A stretch of DNA of 64,000 nucleotides from a virus. How positions within the stretch are numbered: the stretch's first letter is position 1; every line of letters starts with the position of its first letter. Position numbers and translations under genes: made by a program. Shown here piece by piece: positions 17,336 through 63,463 of this stretch. The notes below the pieces were generated by a model that had not been told where the DNA came from, made no database searches, and saw only the letters and a list, made by a program, of their open reading frames with translations. Location of the stretch: positions 1-64,000 of IMG/VR virus record IMGVR_UViG_3300036827_000091, one strand, 5' to 3'.

Positions 17336-17532
17336 GGGCTGTACGTACAGAATGCCCGCGTCCCGCGGCCAGGCAGGCCGCTGCGGGCTTTCTGGCACGG
17401 GAACGGGCACGGGGGCACGCGGCGCTCCCAGGCGCTCCCAGAGCGTTCTGGGGGCTCGGCCAGGCGACGTGTACGCTGAGCCTGACACCCCCGCTCTGAG
17501 CTGTCCCACGCCGCCGACCAAAGCGGGGCTCC
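17336..17532 (+). promoter_or_regulatory. tail-lysis boundary: palindrome, tandem repeat, hairpin
   Basis: This 197-bp gap has no gene. At 17339-17350 lies a perfect 12-bp palindrome, CTGTACGTACAG, matching operator-like sites found elsewhere in the window. At 17421-17440 the decamer GGCGCTCCCA is repeated twice, overlapping a stem-loop (17434-17442 with 17447-17455, loop GCGT). A possible -10, TACGCT, lies at 17472-17477. I read it as the control region for the lysis genes; whether the hairpin terminates transcription is unclear. Confidence 0.5.
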
Positions 17533-24618: not shown

Positions 24619-25356
24619 ATGATCACATCCGTGAAGTGGCGGCAGATCGCCCGCGACCTGCGTAACCGGATCGCCCGGGGTGAGCTTCGCCCAGGTGACC
24701 CGCTGCCGTCCGAGCGGGAGCTGGAGGCCCGTCACGGAGTCGCCCGCGGCACCGCCCGGGTGGCGCTGCAGCACCTGGTGCAAACCGGCGCGGCGGTGGA
24801 CGGCAGCCCGCGCCGGGTGGCACACGCCGAGCTGCTGACCGTGCATATCACCCGCACCGCGGACCGCACCTCGCCCGGCGAATCGCCTACCCTGGGCGCG
24901 GACTCCTGGCTGGGCGACATGCGGGCGGCCGGGCGAGAGCCCGCCCACGAGCTGGACGTGATCACCCGGCAGGCCAGCCGCGAGCTGGCCCAGCGGCTGG
25001 AAGTAGGCGAAGGCTCAGCGGTGGTGGCCCGGCGGCAGCTGCGGCGCGCCGGCGAGCGCCCGCACAATGAGATCACCTACTGGTACCCGGCGGGCGTGGC
25101 CCGCGGGACTCCGCTGGCTAGCCCGGCCAGCATCATCGAAGGGGCGCTGGCATGGCTGGAAACCAACCGGGGGCAGCTGCTGCACGAGGTGGAGATCACC
25201 GCGAGGATGCCCGGCGAAGACGAGGCGGGCCGGCTGCAGATCCCCGGCGGGGTGCCGGTGGCTGTGGTGTGGCGGACGTCGCGGACCCTGGCCGGGGTGC
25301 CGATGGTGACGTCGATGGCCGTGTACCCTGCGGACCGGACCAGGCTGGCCCTCTGA
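24619..25356 (+). CDS. GntR family regulator, HutC subfamily (KorSA/TraR-like)
   Basis: A 245-residue repressor. The N-terminal winged helix (about residues 5-70) has the GntR signature: RIARGELRPGDPLPSERELEARHGVARGTARVALQ, read in parts. Residues 85-240 form a UTRA ligand domain (an LLHEVEIT-type strand and a VWRTSRT strand). HutC members such as KorSA and TraR repress transfer genes and themselves in Streptomyces plasmids and AICEs. The operators just upstream and the divergent membrane-protein operon fit the same job here. It appears to be translated from a leaderless message. Confidence 0.88.
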   Translation: MITSVKWRQIARDLRNRIARGELRPGDPLPSERELEARHGVARGTARVALQHLVQTGAAVDGSPRRVAHAELLTVHITRTADRTSPGESPTLGADSWLGDMRAAGREPAHELDVITRQASRELAQRLEVGEGSAVVARRQLRRAGERPHNEITYWYPAGVARGTPLASPASIIEGALAWLETNRGQLLHEVEITARMPGEDEAGRLQIPGGVPVAVVWRTSRTLAGVPMVTSMAVYPADRTRLAL

Positions 25357-25453
25357 TCCACGGCGACGCCTCGATGGGGGAGGTGCCGCTGGCCGCGCAT
25401 CACGGCGCTGGCAGCTGGCCGCCGATGGCCCCGGCCGGGGAAGGCTGCGATCG

Positions 25454-25726: not shown

Positions 25727-25920
25727 CGGCTGTCCCCGGTATCGGATTGCCCCGGAACCGATACCCACCGCTTGGCGGCAGCCATCTGGGTTTCGTGCTT
25801 CTCGCGGGCCGTCCGGTAATACTCGGCGGCAGGAACGAGGTCGGCCTCCCCGCAGGAGCACACGTACTCATCACACCCGCAGTTGCGGCACACGCCGTCA
25901 TAGTCAGGTGGTCCCGGCAC
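25723..25920 (-). CDS. small zinc-ribbon protein
   Basis: A 65-residue protein. GTG 25920 is six bases after a perfect AGGAGG and is preferred over an ATG farther upstream. CRNCGCDEYVCSCG near the N-terminus provides a four-Cys metal site, followed by an amphipathic helix. It overlaps both neighbours. Related CxxCGC motifs recur in other accessory proteins of this window. Confidence 0.6.
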   Translation of the reverse strand: MPGPPDYDGVCRNCGCDEYVCSCGEADLVPAAEYYRTAREKHETQMAAAKRWVSVPGQSDTGDSR

Positions 25921-26347: not shown

Positions 26348-27018
26348 TTGCCGCCCCCGTTCTGCTGGCTGGCCAGGAACACCCGGGCCTGGTGCTGGCT
26401 GATGCCGTGCCGGGCGGCGAACGACCGGCGTCCCATCGGCTTGCGCTTCTGCTCGTCTTGCGCGGCCAGCGCGGCCAGCTGCGCGTACGACGGAACGTCG
26501 TTCGCAGGCTGCCTGCGCGCCTTGCTCTTGCCCGGCTGCCGGGCTGGGCTCGTGCTGAGGCCATCTTCCGTCCCGGGCTCCCGCCCGTCCGTCTTCCCGG
26601 CGTTCAGCTTTGCGATGCCCAGCCCGGTGCCCAGGCTCGCGGCAGCCGCCAGCGGGGCAGCAGCTGCAGCGAGTTTCGCAGCCCATGGCGCGGCAGGGCC
26701 GACGTGGGCTATGTTCCCAGCTAGCGAGGCAAACAGTCCGGCTGCGGTCAGCGCCCACGCCCACACTTTCACGTAAACCTGTTCGTGACGCCTGACCGCG
26801 CTGTACAGGCGAAGCTCGCCCACCACCAGGAACGAGTCGAGCAGCAGGGGGAAGCCAACGGCCACCCAGCCGGGCATCTGCGCCCGCTGGGTGGCGAAGT
26901 CATACAGGCCCCGGTAAGACATGGCCAGCGCGGCGGCCGAGGCTGCCCAGGTGACGATCGCCACCCCGCGGTCCGCCAGCCAGATAGAGTCCCGCTGTTC
27001 TGCCTGCTTGGCTGCCAT
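26344..27018 (-). CDS. DUF2637 membrane protein (SpdA-like)
   Basis: A 224-residue protein. Residues 15-135 hold four hydrophobic helices in the DUF2637 pattern (SYRGLYDFATQ, then GFPLLLDSFLVVGELRLY). DUF2637 is found in actinomycete plasmid and AICE transfer regions. The C-terminal 60 residues are soluble, with a helix-turn-helix-like end (MGRRSFAARHGISQHQARVFL). It supports the reading of this block as a conjugative transfer module. Its leader carries the TGTACTTACA site shared with the divergent gene. Confidence 0.75.
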   Translation of the reverse strand: MAAKQAEQRDSIWLADRGVAIVTWAASAAALAMSYRGLYDFATQRAQMPGWVAVGFPLLLDSFLVVGELRLYSAVRRHEQVYVKVWAWALTAAGLFASLAGNIAHVGPAAPWAAKLAAAAAPLAAAASLGTGLGIAKLNAGKTDGREPGTEDGLSTSPARQPGKSKARRQPANDVPSYAQLAALAAQDEQKRKPMGRRSFAARHGISQHQARVFLASQQNGGGK

Positions 27019-27034: not shown

Positions 27035-27044
27035 TGTACTTACA
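27035..27044. promoter_or_regulatory. TGTACTTACA operator-like dyad in divergent promoter
   Basis: The decamer TGTACTTACA lies in the 61-bp gap between divergent genes starting at 27018 (-) and 27080 (+). It is one of at least six near-palindromic copies in intergenic DNA of this window and is well placed to control both genes. Confidence 0.55.
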
Positions 27045-27079: not shown

Positions 27080-27295
27080 ATGACCCAGCCGGACCGGCCC
27101 GTCACCCCCAACCGCAGCGCCGGCCGGATCGAGGACGCCCTGTGGCAGCCGTTCCTGGCCAAAGCCCGCGCCGAGGGCCTGACCAACACCGATGCGTTCC
27201 GGCTGCTGATCCGCGAGTGGACCAGCTCGCCGGATGGCCCTGCCCGCAGGGGGCAGGGCCGCCGGTCACGCTTGCGTGGTGCCCGTCCTGGTTAG
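27080..27295 (+). CDS. small ribbon-helix-helix-like DNA-binding protein
   Basis: A 71-residue protein with a core at residues 12-48 (RIEDALWQPFLAKARAEG, then TNTDAFRLLIREW) that resembles the strand-helix-helix of CopG/RHH proteins, and a basic C-terminal tail. It is the only rightward gene between the HutC gene and 47.7 kb. Its divergent position and the dyad in its promoter suggest an autoregulated repressor. It ends in a four-base convergent overlap with the next gene. Confidence 0.6.
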   Translation: MTQPDRPVTPNRSAGRIEDALWQPFLAKARAEGLTNTDAFRLLIREWTSSPDGPARRGQGRRSRLRGARPG

Positions 27296-28391: not shown

Positions 28392-29294
28392 TTAGCTGTA
28401 GTTGCACACGTCGCAGATGTCGTCATGATCACCGGGGGAGCGCGGGTCTTCCCGAGTGCCTGCAGCGCCCGCGTGCTCGGCGGGGGAGTCGGCACCGTAC
28501 GCGGTGTTGATGATCGCGCCGCAGCGCCTGCAGTCGGTCAGCTCGCCGGCCTGCTCCGGGCACCCGCAGCTGCTGCAGGTGCCCGCGCCGCTGCGCGCCA
28601 GCCGCTCGGCCTCGTGCCAGAATGCAGCCGACACCTCGCTGTTGTACTGGGCAGCCAGGTCGTCGCGCAGGTCTGTGCCGTCATGCGGCACCCACCCGGC
28701 GTCAGCCATCAGCTGGTCTTCGGAGTAGTCGCCTGCGAACTCACCGGACAGATCCGGCTCGCGGTAGGCGTCCATGACCTCGGGGTCGCCGTCCTCGATG
28801 CCCTTCAGCACTCGGGCGTACTCCGCCTGCGTCGTGTTGCCGTCGAAAATCCAGCTGGCGGCGGCCTTGCCGTTCTCCTGCGCCTTGGCCCACACCCGGT
28901 GCTCCGGGGTGAATTGGGCGTACGGGTTGCCGTCGGCGTTGTCCTCAGGCATGCGCCCGCCCTGCGGGGCAGATCCTGTGATTTCCCAGCCCTCGTGCTT
29001 GACCGCCCAGTCCACGCTCTGGCTCTGGTGCCCCAGCAGCCAGGCGAAGGCGTCGTTGCTGTTCTTGACCGGATCGTCGCTGTCGAATGTCGCCTGCACA
29101 GCCCCGTCACGCTTGACCTGCACGGCCCCGGCAGTCTCCTGCCTGGTGACCTTCCGCTGCAGCCAGTCGAGGCTGACTGCGCGAGGGAACCTTCCATCCG
29201 GCCGGCGAATCCAGGCTTGCCCGTTGTGGATCTTCTTGACGACGACTTGTGCCCCAGTTGTCAGGGTAAGTGTCTCGCCTTCTCGGATTTCCAT
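28392..29294 (-). CDS. hypothetical protein with C-terminal zinc fingers
   Basis: A 300-residue acidic protein. Residues 1-70 contain a small beta barrel-like segment; the middle is helical with WAKAQENGKAAASWIFDG. The C-terminal 70 residues carry CSSCGCPEQ, CRRCG and a final ICDVCNYS, enough for two zinc sites. It is the first gene behind promoter P1 and is followed 36 bases on by the Ltp gene, which probably shares its message. Function unknown. Confidence 0.65.
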   Translation of the reverse strand: MEIREGETLTLTTGAQVVVKKIHNGQAWIRRPDGRFPRAVSLDWLQRKVTRQETAGAVQVKRDGAVQATFDSDDPVKNSNDAFAWLLGHQSQSVDWAVKHEGWEITGSAPQGGRMPEDNADGNPYAQFTPEHRVWAKAQENGKAAASWIFDGNTTQAEYARVLKGIEDGDPEVMDAYREPDLSGEFAGDYSEDQLMADAGWVPHDGTDLRDDLAAQYNSEVSAAFWHEAERLARSGAGTCSSCGCPEQAGELTDCRRCGAIINTAYGADSPAEHAGAAGTREDPRSPGDHDDICDVCNYS

Positions 29295-29316: not shown

Positions 29317-29370
29317 TGTGCTTACAGCTTACCGGCTGGCCTGCATTCTGTCAACAGTGCAGGCCAGCCG
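29317..29370 (-). promoter_or_regulatory. promoter P1 with operator dyad and 13-bp inverted repeat
   Basis: On the minus strand: TTGACA (29354-29349), 17 bp, TAAGCT (29331-29326), overlapping TGTAAGCACA (29326-29317) at the expected start point. A perfect 13-bp inverted repeat (29333-29345 with 29358-29370) flanks the -35. It drives the gene starting at 29294. Confidence 0.82.
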
Positions 29371-29376
29371 CTTAAA

Positions 29377-29616
29377 TCAGGTCGTCACCCACATCAGGTC
29401 GTCTAGGGCACGCCAGTCGCTGCCCAGCTCTAGCAGCTGGCGCGCGGTCAGGCCCTTCTTCTGCGCGCCCTCGAACACCAGCCTCGGCGCGAGGCCGGGG
29501 TGAAGGTGCTGCAGCGCCTGCGCCGCGGCGGCCAGCGCCGACGTCTCGTCGGCGTGCTTCCAGCCCTTGCCGCCCTTGGCGGTCGGCGCGGCCAGCGCTT
29601 CCTCGTAGGTCGTCAT
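29377..29616 (-). CDS. hypothetical helical protein
   Basis: A 79-residue helical protein (MTTYEEALAAPTAKGGKGW) ending seven bases before the P1 inverted repeat. Its ATG 29616 overlaps the upstream stop. It is the third gene of the unit driven by P2. No family recognised. Confidence 0.6.
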   Translation of the reverse strand: MTTYEEALAAPTAKGGKGWKHADETSALAAAAQALQHLHPGLAPRLVFEGAQKKGLTARQLLELGSDWRALDDLMWVTT

Positions 29617-29852
29617 CAGCCCTCAGTCCCTTCAGCCAGCTGGAATACGCCCCCGTCGCCGAAGGTGACAAACCCCTCGGCTCCGGTGTCTTCGCGCCGT
29701 GCCCACACTGCGTTGAGCACCCGGCCGAACAGGTCGGGCGGGGGGAGCGCCCCGGTCCGCAGCACGGTGGTGCGGACGTCGCGGCGGCCCTGGTCACCCA
29801 TCAGGATGACGTCGCCGTTCTTCAGGTCCAGCCCCTTCACGATCTTGCTCAT
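29616..29852 (-). CDS. hypothetical protein
   Basis: A 78-residue protein. ATG 29852 is chosen because it forms an ATGA overlap with the upstream stop; an in-frame ATG at 29867 would extend it by five residues. The sequence (MSKIVKGLDLKNGDVILMGD) looks like a compact beta fold. No family recognised. Confidence 0.6.
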   Translation of the reverse strand: MSKIVKGLDLKNGDVILMGDQGRRDVRTTVLRTGALPPPDLFGRVLNAVWARREDTGAEGFVTFGDGGVFQLAEGTEG

Positions 29853-30199
29853 GACTGCACCGTCCACTCGGACTCGTCGTAGCTGCGGAAACAGCTTGCG
29901 TAGTAGGCGGCCTGGCCCACTTCTTCGCAGTACACGTTGGCGCGCTCGCCTTTGATCCAGGCTTTCATCCCGCGGAACATGATTCGCCGCACCGTGTAGG
30001 TGTCGTTGCCGGCCAGGTCCACGGTCACCTTGTAGCCGGACGACACGGGCAGGATCACCCCGTGGCCGCTGTCGATCACCCGGCCGCCCGAGATGGCCAT
30101 GACGTTCATCCGCCCGATCTGCGCGACCAGCGTGGCTGCGTCACATTCGGCGAACTGCTCGCGGTCTGCCTGCGCCTGGGCTTCGTCGTAAACCTGCAT
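29849..30199 (-). CDS. hypothetical protein, first gene behind P2
   Basis: A 116-residue protein with an N-terminal helix (YDEAQAQADREQFAECD) and a beta-rich body (GVILPVSSGYKVTVDLAGND). GGGAG precedes ATG 30199. It heads a three-gene unit. Function unknown. Confidence 0.62.
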   Translation of the reverse strand: MQVYDEAQAQADREQFAECDAATLVAQIGRMNVMAISGGRVIDSGHGVILPVSSGYKVTVDLAGNDTYTVRRIMFRGMKAWIKGERANVYCEEVGQAAYYASCFRSYDESEWTVQS

Positions 30200-30222
30200 G
30201 TCCCTGTCTCCCTGCCTGTGTC

Positions 30223-30273
30223 TGTGCCTACAGTCTAGTGACTGGCCTGGAATCTGTCAACACCTCAGGCCAG
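30223..30273 (-). promoter_or_regulatory. promoter P2 with operator dyad
   Basis: Minus strand: TTGACA (30260-30255), 17 bp, TAGACT (30237-30232), overlapping TGTAGGCACA (30232-30223). A 7-bp inverted repeat, CTGGCCT with AGGCCAG (30242-30248, 30267-30273), flanks the -35. Confidence 0.8.
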
Positions 30274-30299
30274 CCCCGCTCCGTCAGGTCGTTAGGTCA

Positions 30300-30650
30300 T
30301 TACTGTCCTCGCATTTCAGCCGCCTCGGCGGCACTGGGGACTCGCTGCCCGTACCGGATGCTGGCCGGGTAGAACTCCCAGGTTTCCGGGTCGATCCCGG
30401 TCGCGTGGGACCGGCGCTCCCAAAGGAAGTAGACATCAACCCACCGGTTCCGGTCCTTCTGTACGGCCCTCGCGTCATCGGTGAAATCTGTCCCGGTGGC
30501 CAGCAGCGCGGCCCTGGCCTCAACGGCAAACCGCTTCTGCCGCAGGCCGGTCACTGCGGCCAGGCCGCTGGTGGTATGCCAGACGCCCCAGCCGTGGCAG
30601 TCCTTGCCTATCCGCAGCCCGCCCTCAGTCTCGGGCGCACGGGCGGTCAT
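30300..30650 (-). CDS. hypothetical protein
   Basis: A 116-residue protein starting in an ATGA overlap at 30650. It is aromatic and charged (GWGVWHTTSGLAAVTGLRQK; RWVDVYFLWERRSHA) and looks globular. It is the second gene behind P3. No family recognised. Confidence 0.6.
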   Translation of the reverse strand: MTARAPETEGGLRIGKDCHGWGVWHTTSGLAAVTGLRQKRFAVEARAALLATGTDFTDDARAVQKDRNRWVDVYFLWERRSHATGIDPETWEFYPASIRYGQRVPSAAEAAEMRGQ

Positions 30651-31138
30651 GACTGGCACCCGCAATTCTCGCAGCTCCGGGTCAGGGCATCCCATTCGGC
30701 CTCGATCTGCTCGCGGGTCTTGCCGCACCACTGGCATTTCCTGCCGGGCGTGTAGTGCGGGCCGTCCAGCGGGTAGCTGACGCAGTTCCACCGGGGCGCG
30801 GTGCGGGCAAACAGCTCCGGGTCGGCTGGCCGCAGGTCGGCCCGCTTGATGCCGGTGTAGCCGCCCCAGTACCAGTCGCCGGCGGTGTCCAGGGTGCCGT
30901 AGCGGTGGCCCCGGTGAATCCGGCCGTAGCCTTTGATGCCGAAAATCTCACCGGTCTCGTTGACCACCATGTACTTGCCGGACATGTTGCCTTTGGGGCC
31001 GATGTCCACCTTGGTGTACTTCGGGCCGGGCACCACCTGCACCTGCTCCCACTCCCACTGCGGGCTGGTCGGGTAGCTGGCCTTCAGCCGGGCCTGCGTC
31101 TGCTCCAGCACCGCCTGCGCGAACTCGTTGACGTCCAT
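30647..31138 (-). CDS. hypothetical protein with C-terminal CxxC pairs
   Basis: A 163-residue protein, first behind P3. The N-terminal helix is followed by a Gly/Tyr-rich beta segment (GKYMVVNETGEIFGIKGYGR). The C-terminal 50 residues hold CQWC and a terminal SCENCGCQS, probably a zinc ribbon. The CxxCGC ending is shared with the proteins at 31224-31748 and 34186-34608. Confidence 0.65.
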   Translation of the reverse strand: MDVNEFAQAVLEQTQARLKASYPTSPQWEWEQVQVVPGPKYTKVDIGPKGNMSGKYMVVNETGEIFGIKGYGRIHRGHRYGTLDTAGDWYWGGYTGIKRADLRPADPELFARTAPRWNCVSYPLDGPHYTPGRKCQWCGKTREQIEAEWDALTRSCENCGCQS

Positions 31139-31162
31139 TCCTGTCTCCCTGCCTCGCTGCCT

Positions 31163-31215
31163 TGTGACTACAGTCTACCGGCTGGCCCGCATTCTGTCAA
31201 CACCCCAGGCCAGCC
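31163..31215 (-). promoter_or_regulatory. promoter P3 with operator dyad and inverted repeat
   Basis: Minus strand: TTGACA (31200-31195), 17 bp, TAGACT (31177-31172), overlapping TGTAGTCACA (31172-31163). GGCTGGCC (31180-31187) and GGCCAGCC (31208-31215) flank the -35. Confidence 0.8.
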
Positions 31216-31223
31216 CTGGTCTG

Positions 31224-31748
31224 TTACTGCGGGCACCCACAGTCGCCGCAGTCGGAGGGCACGATCTCCACGTCCCGGGAGAACCCGCCATCGGCGCGCA
31301 GCACCGCCACGTAGGCGCTCGCCGCGCCTGACAGGCCCGTGCCGGACCCGGCGATGACCGCCTTGGCCGGGGCGCGCACCCGGCCGACCTGGTATCCCTT
31401 GGCCGCGTCGGCAGCCTTGCGCCGCTGCGGGTTCTCAGCCTTGGACGGGCTGAACCAACCGGTGAACCGGCCGCTCGGGTTGTCATCGGGCAGCAGGCCC
31501 CACGCCATCCCGTACCGAGTCTCGACCAGCTTGGCGGCCACCAGGTTCCCGGCAGTGTCGAACAGGGCGGGGAATTCGGCCCGCCCGTCGGCGTCAGCCA
31601 GGTCAGCCTTGGCGCGGCACAGCCTGGCGGTGATCCCCGAGGCCCACTGCGACAGGAATCCGTCCGTGTCGCTGCGCTCGAACGAATCGGCGGCGGCCCG
31701 GTCGGCGTCGATTGCTTTAGCCCTGAGCTGGGCTGCGGTTTCGGTCAT
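31224..31748 (-). CDS. hypothetical protein with CxxCGC tail
   Basis: A 174-residue protein. An N-terminal helical half (AAQLRAKAIDADRAAADSFERS) is followed by a mixed fold with FDTAGNLVAAKLVETRYG and GRFTGWFSPSKA. It ends DCGDCGCPQ, the recurring CxxCGC tail. It is a single-gene unit behind P4. Function unknown. Confidence 0.65.
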   Translation of the reverse strand: MTETAAQLRAKAIDADRAAADSFERSDTDGFLSQWASGITARLCRAKADLADADGRAEFPALFDTAGNLVAAKLVETRYGMAWGLLPDDNPSGRFTGWFSPSKAENPQRRKAADAAKGYQVGRVRAPAKAVIAGSGTGLSGAASAYVAVLRADGGFSRDVEIVPSDCGDCGCPQ

Positions 31749-31773
31749 CTGCCTGCTCCCTGCTTGCCTGTTG

Positions 31774-31825
31774 TCTGCTGACAGCTTACAGCCCTGCAGC
31801 GCATTCTGTCAACACTGCAGGGCTG
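31774..31825 (-). promoter_or_regulatory. promoter P4 with 10-bp inverted repeat
   Basis: Minus strand: TTGACA (31812-31807), 18 bp, TAAGCT (31788-31783). The dyad at the start point is degenerate (TGTCAGCAGA). A perfect inverted repeat, CAGCCCTGCA with TGCAGGGCTG (31789-31798, 31816-31825), flanks the -35. Confidence 0.75.
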
Positions 31826-31829
31826 CAGC

Positions 31830-32147
31830 TCACCGCGTGCTACGGTCACCCAGGTGGGATGTACCGCCCTGGGCGGTGTCGATGTACTGCTGCAGCTGAG
31901 CCAGGCTGGCCCGGACCACGGCCAGTTCGAGCGTGACGTGATGCCAGTCCGGGTGATCACCTATCACGTGAGTGCGCAACTCAGCCAGTGTTTGCCCGGC
32001 GTACAAGCAGACGTGCCGGACTTCCGCCGTGGCCGAGCGAGTCATGCTCTTGTCCGCTTGCGCGCCCCACAGGTCGCCAAGCGCGATCAGCAGCTCATGC
32101 TCGGTGGCTTCGCCGACCGGCTTGGACCGGTCTATGTCCCGGCTCAC
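31830..32147 (-). CDS. hypothetical helical protein
   Basis: A 105-residue protein from GTG 32147 (GTGA overlap). Mostly helical with a His-rich middle (THVIGDHPDWHHVTLELAVV) and a basic end. It closes the operon that starts at 33275. No family recognised. Confidence 0.6.
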   Translation of the reverse strand: MSRDIDRSKPVGEATEHELLIALGDLWGAQADKSMTRSATAEVRHVCLYAGQTLAELRTHVIGDHPDWHHVTLELAVVRASLAQLQQYIDTAQGGTSHLGDRSTR

Positions 32148-32533
32148 ACCAGCTCACCCTTCCAGTTGACCGGGCCGCCCAGGGCGGAAGCCAGCTGGGC
32201 TTGCGCAACTGCGCCCGCGGCAGCCTTGGCGGCCAGCTGGAACGCCTTGCTGTCAATGCTGACCATGCCCATGTCGTGGGCGGCGTCGTGCACCAGCCAG
32301 GCGTAGCCGAGCGCGGTCAGCCACCACCGGGTCGGTGCCCGGCCGGGGGCGGCGTTGGTGGTGACTTCGCCGCGCATCACCAGGGTGCGCAGCACGCCCT
32401 CGGTGTTGCGGTCGGCAGCCCCCGCGCCCCAGCCGCAGCCGGGTGACCATACGCCGTGGCTGCCCAGCCCGCGGAGCATGCTCCGCTGCCGCTTGCCCGC
32501 CTGCCTGCGGTCCCGGCCGCTGCGGTCAGTCAT
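32144..32533 (-). CDS. small winged-helix-like protein
   Basis: A 129-residue protein. ATG 32533 (seven bases after AAAGGGG, TGATG overlap) is preferred over the adjacent GTG. A basic N-terminus is followed by NTEGVLRTLVMRGEV and APTRWWLTALGYAWL, which recall a winged-helix recognition pattern, then an Ala-rich helix. DNA binding is plausible but unproven. Confidence 0.58.
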   Translation of the reverse strand: MTDRSGRDRRQAGKRQRSMLRGLGSHGVWSPGCGWGAGAADRNTEGVLRTLVMRGEVTTNAAPGRAPTRWWLTALGYAWLVHDAAHDMGMVSIDSKAFQLAAKAAAGAVAQAQLASALGGPVNWKGELV

Positions 32534-33036
32534 CACGCATCCCCTTTCCGGCGGTCGGTGACCGCTGCCGCGCCCACATACTTGCCCGGGGGCAGCGGCT
32601 GGCTGCCGAGCACTAGCACCTCGGCGCGGCCGGCGCGCACCCGCACCACCAGCCGCCGGGGCTCGGTGGCCTGCGCCTGCTGGCCTGCGGCCGGCGCAGC
32701 GTCATCGCCTGGCACGCCGGGCGCGTCGTGGATGGTGAACCGGCAGTTAGGGTGCCGGGTGCGGAACCGGCGCAGCTGGACATACGCGGCTTTCAGCCGC
32801 TTCGCAGCGTCCTGGGGGGCTGGCTCCCTGCCTTCCCTGGCCAGCTGCTGGGCGTCGGTGAGCAGCTGCTGCAGCGGCGCTGAGGCCCGCCTGGGGGCCG
32901 ACCAGTACGGCCAGCCGTCGCTGCATGCGTTCACCCCGCGCACCAGGCTGTCCAGCGTGTAAGCGGCCGATCCCAGGACGCTGTGCTGGCCGAGCTGGGC
33001 CAGCGCCTGCTCCACGTCGTGCTCGTTCATCCACAC
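32533..33036 (-). CDS. hypothetical protein
   Basis: A 167-residue protein with a helical N-terminal half and a beta C-terminal part (RRLVVRVRAGRAEVLVLGS) joined by an Ala/Gln linker. Starts GTG 33042, GTG 33036 and ATG 33030 are all in frame; GTG 33036 has the best spacing (eight bases) from GGGAGG. Function unknown. Confidence 0.58.
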   Translation of the reverse strand: MWMNEHDVEQALAQLGQHSVLGSAAYTLDSLVRGVNACSDGWPYWSAPRRASAPLQQLLTDAQQLAREGREPAPQDAAKRLKAAYVQLRRFRTRHPNCRFTIHDAPGVPGDDAAPAAGQQAQATEPRRLVVRVRAGRAEVLVLGSQPLPPGKYVGAAAVTDRRKGDA

Positions 33037-33038
33037 GG

Positions 33039-33275
33039 TCACCGCCTCCCGCCGAACTTTGCGCCCGGGGAGGCGATCCGCTGCTCCAGCTCCGCCGGGG
33101 CCAGCGTCAGGCTCTCGTTGCTCACCACCGGGCACAGCCGCTCCACGTTGGCCACGCTGGCCAATGCGGCGGCAGCCATCCGCACCGGGTCGCCCGGGTA
33201 CATAGCCTGCGCGGCTGCCACGATCATGTCTGCGGCGTGCTCGGCGAACGCCTCCTGCTCGGGCGTGATGTCCAT
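33039..33275 (-). CDS. small hypothetical protein
   Basis: A 78-residue protein starting MDITPEQEAFAEHAADMI, helical, with GGGAG upstream of ATG 33275. Its leader has the common AGGCACAGGCAGAG composition, but I see no clear TTGACA; TATCCT near 33310 may be a weak -10. It heads a four-gene operon. Confidence 0.6.
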   Translation of the reverse strand: MDITPEQEAFAEHAADMIVAAAQAMYPGDPVRMAAAALASVANVERLCPVVSNESLTLAPAELEQRIASPGAKFGGRR

Positions 33276-33336
33276 GTCCTTCTCCCTGTCTCTGCCTGTG
33301 CCTGTTGCCAGGATAGCGCCCTGCTCTGACAGCCAT

Positions 33337-33813
33337 CTATCTCTTGCAAGCGTCGTGCTCGGGGCCGTCCATCGAATGCTCGGCGCAACGTCCCGTCGGC
33401 GGCGTGCCAACTAGCCGGTACCGGGGGCCGGCGAACTCCACTTCGCCATCGTCCCGCATCCGGGCCAGCTCGGCGATCAGCACGCGCCGCTCTGTGTCCA
33501 GGTGGAAGATTTCCAGCTCGGCCAGGGTGGCCATGCGGCCGGGGCGGCGGGCCAGCTCGGCGCGCAGCGCCTTGCGCAGCGGGCTAGGAAAGCCCTTGCC
33601 CGCCCAGTCCGGGGTGTTCCAGTCTTCCTGCCCGGGGGCTTCCAGCTCGCCGTGGTAGTCGCCGTCGTCCGGCGCGCCTGGCCCGCCGTGGTCGCATGTG
33701 ACGTGCACGCCATCCTCGTGGTGCTGGAAGTATGTGTGGTCCCGGTCGCCGCCGGGGTGGTCATGAGTGAGCACCTGCCCGCTGGTCCGGTGAGTGTGCC
33801 TGGTGGTGGTCAT
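33337..33813 (-). CDS. hypothetical His-rich protein
   Basis: A 158-residue protein. The first 65 residues are rich in His and Asp (HTHRTSGQVLTHDHPGGD), as if for metal binding. The C-terminal part is a helical domain with LAELEIFHLDTERRVLIAELA that resembles a winged-helix fold. It ends GRCAEHSMDGPEHDACKR with further Cys and His. Driven by P5. Confidence 0.62.
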   Translation of the reverse strand: MTTTRHTHRTSGQVLTHDHPGGDRDHTYFQHHEDGVHVTCDHGGPGAPDDGDYHGELEAPGQEDWNTPDWAGKGFPSPLRKALRAELARRPGRMATLAELEIFHLDTERRVLIAELARMRDDGEVEFAGPRYRLVGTPPTGRCAEHSMDGPEHDACKR

Positions 33814-33837
33814 GCCTGCTCCCTCTGCCTGTTGTCT

Positions 33838-33876
33838 TGTGATCACAAGCTTAACCGGCGTCCGGCATTCTGTCAA
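33838..33876 (-). promoter_or_regulatory. promoter P5 with palindromic operator
   Basis: Minus strand: TTGACA (33876-33871), 17 bp, TAAGCT (33853-33848), followed directly by the perfect palindrome TGTGATCACA (33847-33838). The first three bases of the -10 are also the TAA stop of the upstream gene. Confidence 0.8.
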
Positions 33877-34189
33877 CACCCCTGGTGATCCGCTTGTTCT
33901 GTTCCACAGACTGGTACGCCTCATACAGCGAGGTGGTCAGCCCGCTGTGCAGCACCCGGCCGGTGCCGTAGTCGCGGGTCCGCCAGGCGAAGCCGGTGCG
34001 CTCGATCTCCACCGAGCCGGCCCAGGTGCCGAAGTTCCAGAACACCCACTGCCAGTGGCCGGGCGCGCCGTGCAGCTGCCAGCGCAACGGCGCGTCCCGC
34101 CCGGCGTGCACCCGGGCCATCGACTCGGCCCAGGCCGCCGCGGCGGCTGAGCGGTCCCAGTTCTCCCCGGTTAGCGGGTCATATGTCAT
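33851..34189 (-). CDS. hypothetical protein whose end overlaps promoter P5
   Basis: A 112-residue aromatic protein (APGHWQWVFWNFGTWAGSVE). Its last 10 residues, including GVDRM, are encoded by the -35 region of P5, and its TAA is part of the P5 -10. It is the last gene of a four-gene run (35136 to 33851). Function unknown. Confidence 0.62.
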   Translation of the reverse strand: MTYDPLTGENWDRSAAAAAWAESMARVHAGRDAPLRWQLHGAPGHWQWVFWNFGTWAGSVEIERTGFAWRTRDYGTGRVLHSGLTTSLYEAYQSVEQNKRITRGVDRMPDAG

Positions 34190-34608
34190 GACTTGCTCCC
34201 TTCGCAGCCACAGTCATGGCAGCGTGCCAGCGCAGCCCGGACATCGGCAGCCGCCTGCCGGTCTTCCTCGGTTTCCGGGCGCTGGCGGGTGGCAACCCGG
34301 CCGATGCGCCCGTTCTTGTCGTGGGGGTAGTGGCTGTGGTCCCAGTCCGGCCGGGCCAGCTTGTCGGGGGTCATGTAGCGCTCGGGCAGCGCCCGGTACC
34401 ACCGGTCAGCTGTGGCGTTGTCCCACGGCAGCATGGCCTCGTGCGTGGCGCACACTGACGGGGACCACCCAAGGCTGAGGATCAGCGACTCCTCGTCCAG
34501 CCGGTGTGACAGAGCCTGACGGTCAGCAAGGTAGCGGTCCAGGTCACCTGCCGATCCGTCCCAGGAGCGGATGTCTTTGGCCCGGGGGTCCGGTCCCGCG
34601 CCGCTCAC
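34186..34608 (-). CDS. hypothetical protein with CxxCGC tail
   Basis: A 140-residue protein from GTG 34608 (GTGA overlap). A charged helical start and a Trp/His/Tyr-rich middle (WDHSHYPHDKNGRIGR) lead to an ending of CHDCGCEGSKS. It shares the C-terminal CxxCGC motif with two other accessory proteins. No family recognised. Confidence 0.62.
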   Translation of the reverse strand: MSGAGPDPRAKDIRSWDGSAGDLDRYLADRQALSHRLDEESLILSLGWSPSVCATHEAMLPWDNATADRWYRALPERYMTPDKLARPDWDHSHYPHDKNGRIGRVATRQRPETEEDRQAAADVRAALARCHDCGCEGSKS

Positions 34609-34964
34609 GGCTTCACCTGCCGCCAGCTGGGCGCGCCGTGGCCTTTGGGTGACACGTCTTCGATCACATGCTGCGCCCGGAGGCTGGCCACGATGTCGCG
34701 CACCGCGGTGCGGCTGACGCCGGACGCGGCGGCGAGCTGGCTGTTGTTGCAGGACCGGCCGGCCAGCGCGCCGATCGCCTGGTACACGGACACGGTCTTC
34801 CAGTCGGCCAGCCACACCTTCACGTAGCTGCCCATGTCCCGGGCGAACGCGGCCATCTCATCGGCGTGCGGCTTAGCCGAGTACACGCCCACCGCCTCCA
34901 CCTTGCCGCCGTCCGCGGGGGCCTTGTCCATGATTTTCACGAACCACCCGTTGCCGATCTTCAT
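34605..34964 (-). CDS. winged-helix DNA-binding protein
   Basis: A 119-residue protein. The N-terminal half is a mixed alpha/beta segment (VKIMDKAPADGGKVEAVGVY). Residues about 70-110 form a helix-turn-helix (CNNSQLAAASGVSRTAVRDIVASL) with a wing (HVIEDV). It is a plausible regulator of this accessory region and could be a reader of the repeated operators, though nothing links it to them directly. Confidence 0.65.
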   Translation of the reverse strand: MKIGNGWFVKIMDKAPADGGKVEAVGVYSAKPHADEMAAFARDMGSYVKVWLADWKTVSVYQAIGALAGRSCNNSQLAAASGVSRTAVRDIVASLRAQHVIEDVSPKGHGAPSWRQVKP

Positions 34965-34971
34965 GACTAAA

Positions 34972-35136
34972 TCAGTCCCTGTCCACGTATCCAGTGGGCA
35001 CGATGTAGGCGATCACGGTTCCCTCGCGGGTGACCGGGGTGGTCACGTATGCGCCGTCGGTGGCTGCCTCAGCGGCCTCGGCAAACCGCTCACCAAGCCC
35101 GGCCAGGTCCATGTCAGTGATCTCGATCGGGTCCAT
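34972..35136 (-). CDS. small acidic protein, first gene after structured leader
   Basis: A 54-residue protein beginning MDPIEITDMDLAGLGERF, with a beta-helix-beta look reminiscent of small Phd-like antitoxins, but no toxin partner is evident. It follows the long non-coding leader 35137-35509 and is the first coding sequence downstream of P6. GAGGAAGG precedes the ATG. Confidence 0.55.
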   Translation of the reverse strand: MDPIEITDMDLAGLGERFAEAAEAATDGAYVTTPVTREGTVIAYIVPTGYVDRD

Positions 35137-35509
35137 GTCCTGCCTTCCTCTGCCTAGTGTCTTGCTTGTGTGGTGCTGCACTCCCACAGGCTCCGGTAGT
35201 CCGGGGCGGTGTCGTCGGGGTTTGGCTGTCCCGCTGAGCCGCTCACCCGCTTGCCGGGGCTGTGGTAAGACGTGCTTTCCAGGTCCCGGCGTGGGGTTGA
35301 CGGGGCACCCGACCAGCCCACCCGGGACCTGCTGGCCGTCCAGACTCGCGCAGGGGCTTCCTGCGCACCTCATAATCACTCACCGGATCGCCATCTGTGC
35401 TCACCGGCTACTCGGCGCGGAGCCCGGGTCCGGGGGGTTCCTACGGCGACAGATCGCCGCGGCTGGTCCCTGGCCCGGGTTGTCCCGGGCTCCGCTGTCT
35501 TGCTGTTGT
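35137..35509 (-). ncRNA. structured non-coding leader or small RNA
   Basis: This 373-nt stretch has no credible gene but lies just downstream of strong promoter P6. It contains several exact inverted repeats: 12 bp (35417-35428 with 35484-35495), 6 bp (35444-35449 with 35454-35459), 7 bp (35348-35354 with 35360-35366), and a 14-bp helix with one bulge (35281-35295 with 35317-35330). A local hairpin, CCCGGG 35474-35479 with 35484-35489, competes with the 12-bp helix, so two folds are possible. It could be an independent RNA or a regulatory 5' leader of the 54-residue gene. I recognise no known riboswitch or tRNA. Confidence 0.5.
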
Positions 35510-35544
35510 ACTTACAGCTTAGCGCCTAGTGTCTATTCTGTCAA
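35507..35544 (-). promoter_or_regulatory. promoter P6 with TGTAAGTACA operator
   Basis: Minus strand: TTGACA (35544-35539), 17 bp, TAAGCT (35521-35516), overlapping TGTAAGTACA (35516-35507). The TAA of the -10 is also the stop of the upstream membrane-protein gene. A hairpin CCCCTG/CAGGGG (35547-35552, 35560-35565) sits just upstream. Confidence 0.82.
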
Positions 35545-35749
35545 CACCCCTGGCCTGCTCAGGGGTTGCGGCCCACAGCCAGATGGCCCGTGCCATCGCG
35601 CCCATGCCGGTCACGACGAAAATCAGCAGAACAGCCAGCCAGGCGTAGGCGCGGGCATTCCATGCGTGGCCGATGAAGATCACCGGCACCAGGCACAGTG
35701 TCATGGCCGCCCAGGACGCTGCCATCCAGCGGACCACGTTGTCAGGCAT
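35519..35749 (-). CDS. two-helix membrane protein overlapping promoter P6
   Basis: A 76-residue protein with membrane helices at about residues 10-28 and 36-58. Its C-terminus (ARGVDRIDTRR) is encoded by the P6 -35 and spacer, and its TAA lies in the -10. The same GVDR sequence ends the protein at 33851-34189 because both read through a TGTTGACAG box. Possibly an exclusion or membrane-stress protein; no family. Confidence 0.62.
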   Translation of the reverse strand: MPDNVVRWMAASWAAMTLCLVPVIFIGHAWNARAYAWLAVLLIFVVTGMGAMARAIWLWAATPEQARGVDRIDTRR

Positions 35750-35954
35750 GCGGGATCACCAGCCCCGGGTCAGTCGGCCCGGTCAGCTCCCGCATGCCCT
35801 CCATGATCTCGTCCCGCAGGCGCATGGCCTCGTCGTAGTGGTCCTGGTCGCGGTAGCGGACGTGGCTGCCTGCCCGGCCGTCGCGCACGTGCCCGGCGAT
35901 CTCCGCCGTGGCCCCGTCGATCCGGTGGTTGCCGGTGACCCTGATGCCGGCCAT
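35742..35954 (-). CDS. small hypothetical protein
   Basis: A 70-residue charged protein (AGIRVTGNHRIDGATAEIAG; DHYDEAMRLRDEIMEGM), starting at ATG 35954 in a TGATG overlap. It is helical at the C-terminus. Second gene behind P7. Confidence 0.58.
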   Translation of the reverse strand: MAGIRVTGNHRIDGATAEIAGHVRDGRAGSHVRYRDQDHYDEAMRLRDEIMEGMRELTGPTDPGLVIPHA

Positions 35955-36265
35955 CACGCGGCCCGCCGTACCGCGGGCAGCACCCAGTCGTGGCCGCCCA
36001 GGCCGGGCACGCCGGACAGCGCCCAGCCCATCCAGGCGCGGGTGTCCCACACCTGGCGCGGCGTGGTGCGCTTCGGCTCGCTAATGTCTTTCACCGGGTC
36101 CGGCGGGGGCTCGCCCGCCATGTTCAGGGTGGCCCGCCTTGCCCAGATGTCCACCTGCTGCCGGGTGACCTGCCGGCCGTCCGGCCAGGACAGCCGCTGG
36201 TTCAGCACCGTGGCCACCACCGCGTATCCGCCGAGTGGCGCTGCTTTCCTTGGCCTGCCGCTCAT
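35954..36265 (-). CDS. small helix-turn-helix protein, AlpA/MerR-like
   Basis: A 103-residue protein. Residues 10-50 (GGYAVVATVLNQRL; GRQVTRQQVDIWARRAT) resemble the short helix-turn-helix of phage AlpA or excisionase-type proteins, followed by a Pro-rich linker and an aromatic C-terminus. First gene behind P7. It may regulate or assist recombination; DNA binding is inferred. Confidence 0.6.
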   Translation of the reverse strand: MSGRPRKAAPLGGYAVVATVLNQRLSWPDGRQVTRQQVDIWARRATLNMAGEPPPDPVKDISEPKRTTPRQVWDTRAWMGWALSGVPGLGGHDWVLPAVRRAA

Positions 36266-36309
36266 CGTCCTGCCTCCTGCCTGTTGCCTTCTGCTCGCCT
36301 GTCTACGCC

Positions 36310-36347
36310 AGTATCAGCGGCGATTCGTATTCTGTCAACATCGCCGG
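36310..36347 (-). promoter_or_regulatory. promoter P7
   Basis: Minus strand: TTGACA (36338-36333), 17 bp, GATACT (36315-36310). CGGCGAT and ATCGCCG form a 7-bp inverted repeat around the -35. The start-point dyad is poorly conserved here. It follows directly after the terminator of the ArdC gene. Confidence 0.72.
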
Positions 36348-36348
36348 T

Positions 36349-36381
36349 AGGCCCGGCCCCCCCGTGAGGGGAGCCGGGCCT
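36349..36381 (-). terminator. terminator of the ArdC-like gene
   Basis: AGGCCCGGC (36349-36357) pairs perfectly with GCCGGGCCT (36373-36381), with further C:G pairs inside, seven bases after the ArdC stop. No U-run follows. Promoter P7 begins within a few bases, making a terminator-promoter boundary. Confidence 0.7.
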
Positions 36382-36387
36382 CAGCGG

Positions 36388-37257
36388 TCAGGCGGCTACG
36401 GCTGCCAGCTCCCGCTCGCTGCCGTCCGCGGCAGCGGCCTTGCCCAGCTCGCCCAGGATGGCGGTGACCGCCTTCTGGATGCGGCCCGCGCTGGCCCGGA
36501 TGCCGTCCTTGGCCTTCTCCGCGTCCTCGGCCCAGCCGGCCACGTAGCCGAAGCTGTAGTCACCGGAGTCGAAACCCAGCGAGCCCATCACCGCGTAGGC
36601 CACCGACTCGGCTTCCAGCTCGCACAGCCCGCGCCCGGACTTGTTGCCATCGGCCAGATGGCCGAGCTGCCAGTGCGCGATCTCGTGCGCCAGGGTCTTG
36701 GCCCGGTGCAGCGGGCTGCGGTCCGGGTGGATCTCGATCCGCCCGTCCTTGTGGGTGACGCCGTTGGCCTGGCCCAGGTCGGCGTCGGCCACCGAGGCGA
36801 CGCCCAGCGCCAGCGCTGCGTCAGCCAGCTGGCCGAACAGCCCGTCCGGGTCCTGGCCGTCCAGGCAGCGGGTCACCTCGGGCAGCGGCGCGCCCTCGGT
36901 CTGGGACACGTCGAACACCGGCACCGTCTTCCAGCCGAACACGACCTGGCTTTTGGCACCCGTGTCCTCGTCTGTCTCGGACCGGGTCATCGGGGCCAGA
37001 ATCCAGATGGCGTGCTCGCCTTTTTTGACGCTGCGGCCCAGCGACTTCCACCCGCTGGTGCCCGCCTTGTTGCCGAAGCCCATCACCTGGGTGGCGTCCG
37101 GGTTCTGGAACAGGATCAGCATGACGTTGCCGAAGCTGTACCGGTGAAACTTGGCCATGGTGGCCAGGTAGCGCTGCCACTCGCCTGAGTCGGCCAGCTT
37201 GCTGATGCCGTCTTCCAGGCTGGCCAGCATTTCCTTGGTCCGGTCGTTCATCGCCAC
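36388..37257 (-). CDS. ArdC-like antirestriction protein with metalloprotease motif
   Basis: A 289-residue protein. GTG 37257, six bases after GGGAGG, is preferred to ATG 37251. Residues about 10-125 match the ArdC N-terminal ssDNA-binding domain (WQRYLATMAKFHRYSFGN; ILFQNPDATQVMGF; WKSLGRSVKKGEHAIWILAP). The C-terminal part has a zinc metallopeptidase motif, HEIAHWQLGH (His191, Glu192, His195). ArdC proteins from conjugative plasmids shield incoming DNA from restriction. Here it would protect phage or plasmid DNA on entry. It stands alone behind P8 with its own terminator. Confidence 0.85.
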   Translation of the reverse strand: MAMNDRTKEMLASLEDGISKLADSGEWQRYLATMAKFHRYSFGNVMLILFQNPDATQVMGFGNKAGTSGWKSLGRSVKKGEHAIWILAPMTRSETDEDTGAKSQVVFGWKTVPVFDVSQTEGAPLPEVTRCLDGQDPDGLFGQLADAALALGVASVADADLGQANGVTHKDGRIEIHPDRSPLHRAKTLAHEIAHWQLGHLADGNKSGRGLCELEAESVAYAVMGSLGFDSGDYSFGYVAGWAEDAEKAKDGIRASAGRIQKAVTAILGELGKAAAADGSERELAAVAA

Positions 37258-37281
37258 GGTGGGCCTCCCTTGCCTCTGCCT

Positions 37282-37320
37282 TGTGTAACAGAGCCTACCG
37301 ACATTTTCCCATTCTGTCAA
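37282..37320 (-). promoter_or_regulatory. promoter P8
   Basis: Minus strand: TTGACA (37320-37315), 17 bp, TAGGCT (37297-37292), with a loose dyad CTGTTACACA at the start point. Only half of the flanking inverted repeat (TGCAGGC) is kept. Drives the ArdC-like gene. Confidence 0.78.
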
Positions 37321-37342
37321 CACTGCAGGCGGAGAGCAGCAA

Positions 37343-38466: not shown

Positions 38467-39258
38467 CTATCCCTGCTGTGTTGAGATCACGTGCCGGACG
38501 GCCATGTCGAGCGTCCAGCCTTCCACCATCCCCGGGTAGCCGAGCTGCATATCCCAGGGCAGCCTGCCCCACAGCCGGTTCCCGGTCTCGAACTGCTTGC
38601 TGGGGCCGGTCCACATGTGGTGGGTGCCGTCTTCGGCGATCCACAGCCAGCCCTCGTAGTCCGGCGCGTACGGCACCAGATCCTGTGACTGCCCGGCAAG
38701 CCAGGGCCGCCATTTGCCTGTCTTGTAATCCAGGTGGGTGCCGCACACGAACGTCACCGCGCCCACCGGGCGGGTCGGATGGGTGAGCAGCCCCTTGTAG
38801 TCGCTGACCAGCTTGGTGACGTGGCGGAGCAGCATGCCCCACTGGTCCCGCTCCATTTTCCGCAGGCCGGCCATGGACAGCATCACCTGGTTGACCACCG
38901 AGCCCACCGAGTCCACGCTGACCGAGTTGAACGGGTGCTGCCCGCTGGCCAGGATCTGGTGCGTGCGGTGCAGCGTGTCCACGTCGTGCACCACCACGAT
39001 GCAGGTGTCCCAGCTGCCGTCGGCGGCCGGCACGGTTTCCCGGGCCGGATTCCAGTAGATTTTTCTCGACGGCGTCCAGAACGCGGCCTGCTCCACGTCC
39101 AGCACCAGCACCGGCCTCGGCCCTGAGTCGGCCCAGCTGGATTTCCCGTGCTTCTGCGGCGCGTGCACCAGCCCGCACAGCCCCTGCGCCAGGTGGCGCT
39201 GGCCCTGCTGGTAGTGCCCGTTCGGCGTTGCGCCGTACACGGTGGCGACTTGTGTCAC
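38467..39258 (-). CDS. Sak4-like RecA-family ATPase
   Basis: A 263-residue protein with a P-loop at residues 33-41 (APQKHGKSS, an atypical first residue) and a Walker B-like SVSVDSVGS strand near residue 115. Size and position next to the DUF669-like protein and PD-(D/E)XK nuclease fit the Sak4 single-strand annealing ATPases of phages. It probably drives homologous recombination with those partners. It is preceded by the TGTACGTACA site at 39277. Confidence 0.75.
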   Translation of the reverse strand: MTQVATVYGATPNGHYQQGQRHLAQGLCGLVHAPQKHGKSSWADSGPRPVLVLDVEQAAFWTPSRKIYWNPARETVPAADGSWDTCIVVVHDVDTLHRTHQILASGQHPFNSVSVDSVGSVVNQVMLSMAGLRKMERDQWGMLLRHVTKLVSDYKGLLTHPTRPVGAVTFVCGTHLDYKTGKWRPWLAGQSQDLVPYAPDYEGWLWIAEDGTHHMWTGPSKQFETGNRLWGRLPWDMQLGYPGMVEGWTLDMAVRHVISTQQG

Positions 39259-39276: not shown

Positions 39277-39289
39277 TGTACGTACACTA
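39277..39289 (-). promoter_or_regulatory. operator TGTACGTACA with nested -10 TAGTGT
   Basis: The 10-bp palindrome TGTACGTACA (39277-39286) overlaps a -10-like TAGTGT (39289-39284 on the minus strand), whose TAG is the stop of the upstream nuclease gene. No good -35 is visible. It would give the Sak4 and DUF669 genes their own regulated promoter. Confidence 0.55.
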
Positions 39290-53438: not shown

Positions 53439-53450
53439 GTGTACGTACAC
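53439..53450. promoter_or_regulatory. GTGTACGTACAC palindrome
   Basis: A perfect 12-bp palindrome, one of the TGTACGTACA family, 136 bases before the gene at 53587. A -10-like TAGGCT lies just upstream (53429-53434). The rest of 53401-53586 shows no gene I can support, only two AGGCAGGAGGCAG stretches near the next start. Confidence 0.55.
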
Positions 53451-63254: not shown

Positions 63255-63463
63255 CGTGATGGCAGGGGGCTGATGGACACACACCCGGGTGCCTGGCCCC
63301 TTGCCCCGGCGGCAGGGGGCTGCTACCCCCCCCGGCGGCTCCCTGCCCCGCTGGGAGCCCCGCTGCCAAAACAAGTCACTGTAAGTACACTGTGTCACAC
63401 GCGATCCTGCGGCCACCTCGTGTACCTTTGACGCCATCACGTTGTTCTAAGCCAGCGGGGTGA
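63255..63463. promoter_or_regulatory. intergenic region with hairpin and TGTAAGTACA site
   Basis: No gene is seen in these 209 bases. They contain GGCAGGGGGCTG twice (63264, 63311), a run of nine C, a 7-bp hairpin GGCTCCC/GGGAGCC (63337-63343, 63353-63359), and TGTAAGTACA (63380-63389), the same dyad as in the accessory promoters. Likely a transcription boundary before the last genes. Confidence 0.5.

What the first reader, a model, noticed from the sequence alone, without database searches (positions are those of the whole stretch)
29317..37320. Family of eight near-identical promoters with a shared start-point operator
Leftward promoters at about 29.34, 30.25, 31.19, 31.80, 33.86, 35.53, 36.32 and 37.31 kb all read TTGACA, then 17 bp (18 in one), then TAAGCT, TAGACT, TAGGCT or GATACT. 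In P1, P2, P3, P5 and P6 the -10 runs straight into a dyad: TGTAAGCACA, TGTAGGCACA, TGTAGTCACA, TGTGATCACA, TGTAAGTACA. Such strong consensus -35 boxes are rare in high-GC phages. Each unit also has a similar purine-rich AGGCA-type leader. This looks like a phage regulon of independently transcribed accessory genes under one repressor, similar in logic to mycobacteriophage stoperators or start-associated sequences but with a different sequence.
Basis: partly seen in the sequence, partly recalled or inferred. Interest (0 to 1): 0.85.

Follow-up and report, generated by a model that had tools for sequence, protein, structure and literature searches.

The report
Repeated phage promoters with shared core
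An uncultured soil phage, probably of actinobacteria, carries eight near-identical strong promoters in front of separate early genes, and related phages use the same core sequence inside a different, stress-type promoter, which suggests these phages change which host sigma factor turns the genes on.

Summary
The eight leftward sites are real: TGTTGACAGAAT (exact in 7 of 8), a 17-18 bp spacer, then TANNCT or GATACT. In leave-one-out scoring every site beats the best of 40 shuffles. A second motif, the dyad TGTANNTACA, is also real: 6 exact copies against 0.05 expected, all outside called genes. It lies between -10 and start at P6; looser forms (TGTN4ACA) lie there at P1, P2, P3 and P5.

The phage belongs to an uncultured soil group. 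One syntenic relative (G001) has nine copies of the core. In most other relatives carrying the core it lies 18-19 bp after GGAAT/C, matching the sigma-R/sigma-H (ECF) consensus GGAAT-N18-GTT. In the window and nearly all G001 sites GGAAT is absent and the core serves as a sigma-A -35. No sigma gene was found in these phages.

Best reading: a multi-copy, insulated promoter cassette for early/accessory genes whose core is probably also an operator. It works like the ESAS promoters of cluster K mycobacteriophages but is not a member. Candidate regulators, none shown: a 103-aa winged-helix protein (35954-36265) for the core; an Arc-like protein (27080-27295) for the dyad, which precedes its gene in three phages. 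P6 also heads a structured non-coding leader.

The parts
29326..29356 (-). P1: core TGTTGACAGAAT (29345-29356), -35 TTGACA, 17 bp, -10 TAAGCT (29326-29331); reads into 28392-29294
29317..29326 (.). Dyad TGTAAGCACA (- strand) just after the P1 -10
29333..29370 (.). 13-bp perfect inverted repeat around the P1 core (12 nt between the arms)
30232..30262 (-). P2: core TGTTGACAGATT, -10 TAGACT; dyad TGTAGGCACA at 30223-30232; inverted repeat 30242-30273
31172..31202 (-). P3: core TGTTGACAGAAT, -10 TAGACT; dyad TGTAGTCACA at 31163-31172; inverted repeat 31180-31215
31783..31814 (-). P4: core TGTTGACAGAAT, 18-bp spacer, -10 TAAGCT; inverted repeat 31789-31825; no TGTN4ACA dyad
33848..33878 (-). P5: core TGTTGACAGAAT, -10 TAAGCT; palindrome TTGTGATCACAA centred in dyad 33838-33847
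35516..35546 (-). P6: core TGTTGACAGAAT, -10 TAAGCT; dyad TGTAAGTACA at 35507-35516; orthologous promoter at G001 60575
35137..35512 (-). Structured non-coding leader or RNA behind P6
   Evidence: fold z -3.15; ends conserved in G001
36310..36340 (-). P7: core TGTTGACAGAAT, -10 GATACT; reads into the 103-aa winged-helix gene; inverted repeat 36318-36346 and separate hairpin 36350-36380
37292..37322 (-). P8: core TGTTGACAGAAT, -10 TAGGCT; reads into an ArdC-like anti-restriction gene (36388-37284)
35954..36265 (-). 103-aa winged-helix-like protein; candidate binder of the core
   Evidence: conserved in phages with the core; model pLDDT 89.6; VIA-align
27080..27295 (+). Arc-like RHH protein; candidate binder of the dyad
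   Evidence: PHROG 6506, 1.1e-05; conserved in G001 and G031
27035..27044 (.). Dyad TGTACTTACA upstream of the Arc-like gene; same placement in G001 (50532) and G031 (9108)
39277..39286 (.). Dyad TGTACGTACA upstream of the Sak4-like gene 38467-39258
17340..17349 (.). Intergenic dyad TGTACGTACA
53440..53449 (.). Intergenic dyad TGTACGTACA
63380..63389 (.). Intergenic dyad TGTAAGTACA
24619..25356 (+). GntR/HutC regulator with its own GTATATAC/GTATAGAC pair upstream (24570-24587)

Best explanation
The eight sites are a multi-copy promoter cassette that lets separate early/accessory units be transcribed independently by host RNA polymerase with the housekeeping sigma factor (TTGACA, 17 bp, TANNCT). 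The -35 lies inside a 12-bp core, TGTTGACAGAAT, which is an operator for a phage DNA-binding protein that switches the set together; the most likely binder is the 103-aa winged-helix protein made from P7, or an equivalent. A second layer, the TGTANNTACA-type dyad between the -10 and the start at five promoters, is bound by the Arc-like RHH protein, which also represses its own gene. Hairpins help insulate the units. In the wider phage group the same core is the -10 and start segment of GGAAT-N18-GTT promoters of the sigma-R/sigma-H type, so the sigma class used differs between lineages while the core is kept. Shown: the sequences, their statistics, conservation and co-occurrence. Inferred: transcription, the binders, repression, insulation, and the direction of the sigma change.
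For: Promoter sites far beyond chance. Unbiased 10-mer counts make the core the top repeated word in the window, G001 and G031, and its variant TGTTGATAGAA a top word in G044 and G047. The core is conserved outside the -35 hexamer (TG before, GAA after) and occurs at three promoter positions: -35 (window, G001), the -10/start of GGAAY-N18-GTT (G031, G044, G047, L233, G045), and just after a -10 in G001 60989 and 56912; a plain sigma-A -35 would not predict that. Among contigs chosen without the motif, GGAAY-Nk-GTTKA has 23 cases at k=18 and at most 6 at any other k from 10 to 27. Sigma-H consensus GGAAt-N18-19-GTT: PMC10012870. The winged-helix gene lies among the core sites in all seven phages mapped; its model is confident, and most of the nine VIA-align rows are HTH/winged-helix DNA-binding domains at Z 5.3-3.6. 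The dyad precedes the Arc-like gene in three phages; RHH, GntR and the strict dyad are absent together from G034, G047 and G052.
Against: No transcript or binding data. P1-P3 may be recent duplicates of one intergenic cassette, so the copies are not fully independent. Nothing but neighbourhood links the winged-helix protein to the core; its PDB rows have low Z and include packaging proteins of the gpNu1 type, so it could be a terminase subunit. The Arc-like model is only moderate (pLDDT 70), and P1, P2, P3 and P5 carry looser dyads than TGTANNTACA.
Confidence: 0.6

Rival explanations
1. The eight sites are simply strong host sigma-A promoters spread by duplication of one intergenic cassette; no phage protein reads the core, and the conserved flanks reflect recent copying.
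For: P1-P3 share extended similarity including the flanking arms and part of the spacer.
Against: The core is kept in G001 and G031 although their proteins are mostly 40-60% identical to the window's, with unrelated spacers and downstream genes; GAA is kept outside the -35; the core also occurs where it is not a -35.
Confidence: 0.2
2. The core is a stoperator-type asymmetric operator bound by a monomeric immunity repressor of the L5 kind, acting in lysogeny.
For: Asymmetric, one orientation, multi-copy, variant between related phages, overlaps the -35; CTGTCAA is shared with the L5 consensus as recalled from memory.
Against: The L5 consensus is not clearly enriched; no core site lies away from a promoter apart from one imperfect chance match in coding sequence at 62486; no such repressor among the proteins scanned.
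Confidence: 0.1
3. The core is mainly a leftover of an ancestral ECF -10; in the window it is kept only because TTGACA is a good -35, with no operator role.
For: The majority of relatives have GGAAY-N18-GTT; G031 has both signals at one site.
Against: Conservation of AGAA(G/T) after the ECF GTT and after the sigma-A -35 is not explained; the start-position copies in G001 are not explained.
Confidence: 0.1

Closest known systems
ESAS promoters of cluster K mycobacteriophages (Adephagia, TM4; PMC3203893, PMC11373665)
   Same: About seven intergenic copies of a SigA-like promoter (17-18 bp spacing) before separate non-structural genes; TGTTGACA at the -35; palindromic element over the promoter; conserved element before the start codon.
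   Different: ESAS is a 17-bp inverted repeat TGTTGACATGCATACAG / CTGTATGCATGTCAACA spanning both boxes, followed by SAS GGGATAGGAGCCC. The window core is TGTTGACAGAAT with a separate TGTANNTACA-type dyad and no SAS.
Cluster A operators/stoperators (L5, TipsytheTRex; PMC9283540, PMC6550527)
   Same: Multi-copy asymmetric site in one orientation; overlaps an early promoter; the motif differs between related phages.
   Different: The known consensus is not clearly enriched, no non-promoter sites were found, and no such repressor was identified.
Sigma-R/sigma-H (ECF) promoters of actinobacteria (PMC10012870)
   Same: Relatives G031, G034, G041, G043, G044, G047, L233 and G045 have GGAAT/C-N18-GTT before early genes.
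   Different: The window sites have none; no sigma gene in these phages and no known link to thiol stress.
phiC31 conserved inverted repeats (from memory, not tested)
   Same: Many repressor sites in the early region, some over sigma-A-like promoters.
   Different: Sequence and repressor were not compared here.

Membership tests
Housekeeping sigma-A promoter | TTGACA-like and TANNNT-like hexamers 16-19 bp apart | tested here: met
   7 of 8 sites strictly, P7 with GATACT
Housekeeping sigma-A promoter | mapped transcription start | not testable with these tools
   needs RNA data
Sigma-R/sigma-H ECF promoter (window sites) | GGAAT/C 18-19 bp before GTT | tested here: not met
   0 of 8 window sites
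Sigma-R/sigma-H ECF promoter (relatives) | GGAAT/C 18-19 bp before GTT | tested here: met
Cluster K ESAS/SAS | multi-copy SigA-like promoter before non-structural genes | tested here: met
Cluster K ESAS/SAS | 17-bp inverted repeat spanning the promoter, and SAS GGGATAGGAGCCC before the start codon | tested here: not met
   SAS matches at chance level; the window core has no inverted partner, though G001 63967 and 59466 do
Cluster A stoperator | consensus GGTGGMTGTCAAG (consensus from memory) in 20-30 copies across the genome | tested here: not met
   7 against 3.7 expected at up to 2 mismatches, none at the eight sites
Cluster A stoperator | L5-type two-domain monomeric repressor | tested here: inconclusive
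   none among the proteins scanned; not every ORF was scanned
Arc-like RHH repressor (27080-27295) | family profile match | tested here: met
   PHROG 6506, 1.1e-05; no Pfam hit
Arc-like RHH repressor (27080-27295) | beta-strand plus two helices, dimer | tested here: inconclusive
   two helices modelled at pLDDT 70, no strand; monomer model only
MerR/BldC/gpNu1-type winged helix (35954-36265) | winged-helix fold | tested here: inconclusive
   VIA-align Z 5.3-3.6, mostly HTH/winged-helix domains; no significant Foldseek hit; no Pfam or PHROG match for the window protein

The most novel reading that the evidence does not exclude
A phage clade keeps one multi-copy regulatory core while swapping the host sigma factor that reads it. 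In most relatives the early/accessory genes are tied to the host's sigma-R/sigma-H (thiol and oxidative stress) polymerase through GGAAT-N18-GTTGAYAGAAG. In the window and G001 lineages the same core became the -35 of housekeeping promoters, with G031 as a form that has both signals at one site.
Probability: 0.4. Interest if true: 0.8.

Novelty: new variant of a known kind. Interest (0 to 1): 0.6.

Why it matters
Repeated promoter cassettes in actinophages (ESAS, stoperators) are known but poorly explained. Here one cis element can be followed through three promoter positions and two sigma classes within one clade, so operator function can be separated from promoter function by comparison. If the stress-sigma reading holds, it predicts that early or accessory genes of a widespread soil phage group respond to host thiol stress, which can be tested with reporters in Streptomyces strains lacking sigR.

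Tried and rejected
Close relatives among 50,697 sequenced phages: none by megablast of 28-38 kb, none for the cassette (one unrelated Pseudomonas match), none for the 103-aa protein. Helicase as query in viral contigs: no relatives. Capsid in GTDB genomes: none, so the host is unknown. Phage-encoded sigma factor: none above cut-off by PF08281 in 19 phages or PF04542 in 14. HutC/GntR as dyad owner: its upstream GTMTAKAC pair is not kept upstream of the gene in the two relatives that have it. Winged-helix 34605-34964: no homolog in relatives. Most single hits of the first pattern scan are in lower-GC contigs and were set aside as chance or unrelated. TANNCTGTAMKTACAACAGC hits other than G001 are AT-rich and unrelated. 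U-tract terminators: none found. Rfam: no hit above cut-off for the P6 leader. Foldseek: no significant PDB match for the 103-aa model. Literature searches for phage use of ECF promoters gave nothing on point. A first tblastx comparison timed out.
Full report
OBSERVATION. The window is almost the whole of a 64,576-bp IMG/VR record with GC about 0.69. The eight sites were read directly and are as described: TTGACA, 17 bp (18 at 31.8 kb), TAAGCT/TAGACT/TAGGCT/GATACT, all on the - strand between 29.3 and 37.3 kb. TTGACAGAAT within one mismatch occurs 11 times against 0.66 expected; eight are these sites, the other three are imperfect matches elsewhere. Full promoters occur 7 times against 0 in shuffles. 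A two-block matrix scored leave-one-out gives 26.3-37.8 for the sites; the best score in 40 shuffles is 21.2, with no further window hit. The conserved core is longer than the -35: TGTTGACAGAAT.

SECOND MOTIF. TGTN4ACA dyads sit at P1, P2, P3, P5 and P6. The strict form TGTANNTACA occurs six times against 0.05 expected, all outside called genes: at P6, upstream of the Arc-like gene (27035), upstream of the Sak4-like gene (39277), and at 17340, 53440 and 63380. G001 has five and G031 two. None was listed in G032, G034, G036, G047 or G052. The dyad stands upstream of the Arc-like gene in all three phages where that gene was found (window 27035; G001 50532; G031 9108), although the gene is inverted in G001. 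Self-regulation by this protein is the simplest reading; it is not shown.

RELATIVES. A pattern scan found one relative with several copies, IMGVR_UViG_3300010366_000012 (G001, 75 kb), syntenic over the structural and replication genes. A polymerase search added the fragment G031, and a capsid search at least 80 metagenome contigs at 83-90% identity. The closest capsid in a sequenced phage is 42% identical (a Microcystis phage record); the rest are actinophages at about 36%. No host could be assigned.

THE CORE ELSEWHERE. Unbiased 10-mer counts put the core at the top in the window, G001 and G031, TGTTGATAGAA among the top words in G044 and G047, and GGTGTTTACA at the top in G034. Reading these sites showed GGAAT or GGAAC 18 bp before GTT. 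Among contigs chosen without reference to the motif, N18 has 23 cases and no other spacing from 10 to 27 has more than 6. This is the sigma-R/sigma-H consensus (GGAAt-N18-19-GTT, -10 t/cGTTgaa; PMC10012870). A wider scan found more such phages (L209, L220, L233, L235/G045, L241); these were chosen by the pattern, so they count as examples, not statistics. Counting core words with a GGAAY box at N18-19 and with a strict TANNNT at N16-19: window 0 and 7; G001 1 and 6 of 9; G031 3 and 1 of 3; G044 5 and 0 of 5; G047 4 and 0 of 5; L233 5 and 0 of 5. The window count holds nine words because one chance match at 62486 lies in coding sequence. In G001, two core copies (60989, 56912) lie just after a -10 (TAGACT, TACACT) with their own -35 (TTGCCT, TTGAGA) 17 bp upstream. 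One short sequence therefore occupies three promoter positions, which fits an operator better than a promoter hexamer. No sigma factor gene was found in these phages.

CANDIDATE BINDERS. A 103-aa protein (35954-36265, first gene of the P7 unit) has orthologs in G001, G031, G034, G036, G044, G047, L233 and L235. Core sites flank it at similar offsets in G044, G047, L233 and G045. Its model is confident; a second look lists mainly HTH/winged-helix DNA-binding domains such as BldC, MerR-type regulators and gpNu1 at Z 5.3-3.6, with a viral packaging-motor protein at the top and one unrelated enzyme last. Foldseek alone gave nothing significant. This is a lead, not an identification.

INSULATION AND LEADER. 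Inverted repeats enclose the core at P1 (13 bp, perfect), P2, P3, P4 and P7. P7 also follows a separate strong hairpin. No hairpin with a T run was found, so whether these terminate transcription is inference. P6 heads about 375 nt without a called gene that folds better than all shuffles (z -3.15). The G001 counterpart runs about 800 nt (z -3.76) and shares both ends: TAAGCTGTAAGTACAACAGCA at the 5' side and CTCAGCGGGAYAGCCAAMCCCCGACGAC near the 3' side. Rfam has no match above its cut-off.

COMPARISON. Adephagia ESAS promoters were read directly: TGTTGACATGCATACAG, a short spacer, CTGTATGCATGTCAACA, then SAS GGGATAGGAGCCC. They share the logic (several SigA-like promoters with TGTTGACA inside a repeated element, before separate genes) but not the sequence. 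SAS in the window is at chance level, and the L5 stoperator consensus is not clearly enriched. The set is filed as a new variant of the kind 'repeated actinophage promoter/operator cassette', not as a member of either family.

LIMITS. Everything rests on sequence. The promoters, the operators and the sigma change need RNA and binding data. Copies within one genome may be partly duplicates. The direction of the change is inferred from the majority state among relatives.

Noticed in passing
window 35137-35512 (-); L007 1213-2008 (-): Long structured non-coding leader or RNA from P6, conserved at both ends between two phages, variable in length (about 375 and 800 nt), no Rfam family above cut-off.
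   Followed up: partly
window 20176-27018: GntR/HutC (24619-25356), DUF2637 membrane protein (26344-27018) and a weak FtsK-like protein (20176-22140), kept in G001 and G031: resembles a transfer module of actinomycete conjugative elements inside a phage.
   Followed up: partly
G001 (IMGVR_UViG_3300010366_000012) 59466 and 63967: Core followed by an inverted copy of itself (TTGACAGAAT-GG-ATTCTGCCAA; TTGACAGAA-CGGA-TTCTGTCAA), an ESAS-like arrangement.
   Followed up: no
G034 (IMGVR_UViG_3300024331_000061): Related phage with a third core, GGTGTTTACA(C), 7 copies, several of them with GGAAY-N18-GTT.
   Followed up: partly
IMGVR_UViG_3300009506_000002 (G014) and IMGVR_UViG_3300047510_001118 (G010): Other large viral contigs with their own promoter families: over 20 TTGACA-N17-TAGACT-like promoters in G014; about 17 TTGACA-N17/18-TANNCT promoters in G010, several with ACCGGT near the -10.
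   Followed up: no
G044 and G047, before start codons: AGGGAGAAGAT in about ten copies, many directly before start codons, comparable in position to cluster K SAS.
   Followed up: no
window 42643-43401 (-): ParB-like/DUF6551 protein next to the DNA polymerase genes; no integrase was seen among the proteins scanned, so a plasmid-like prophage state is possible.
   Followed up: no
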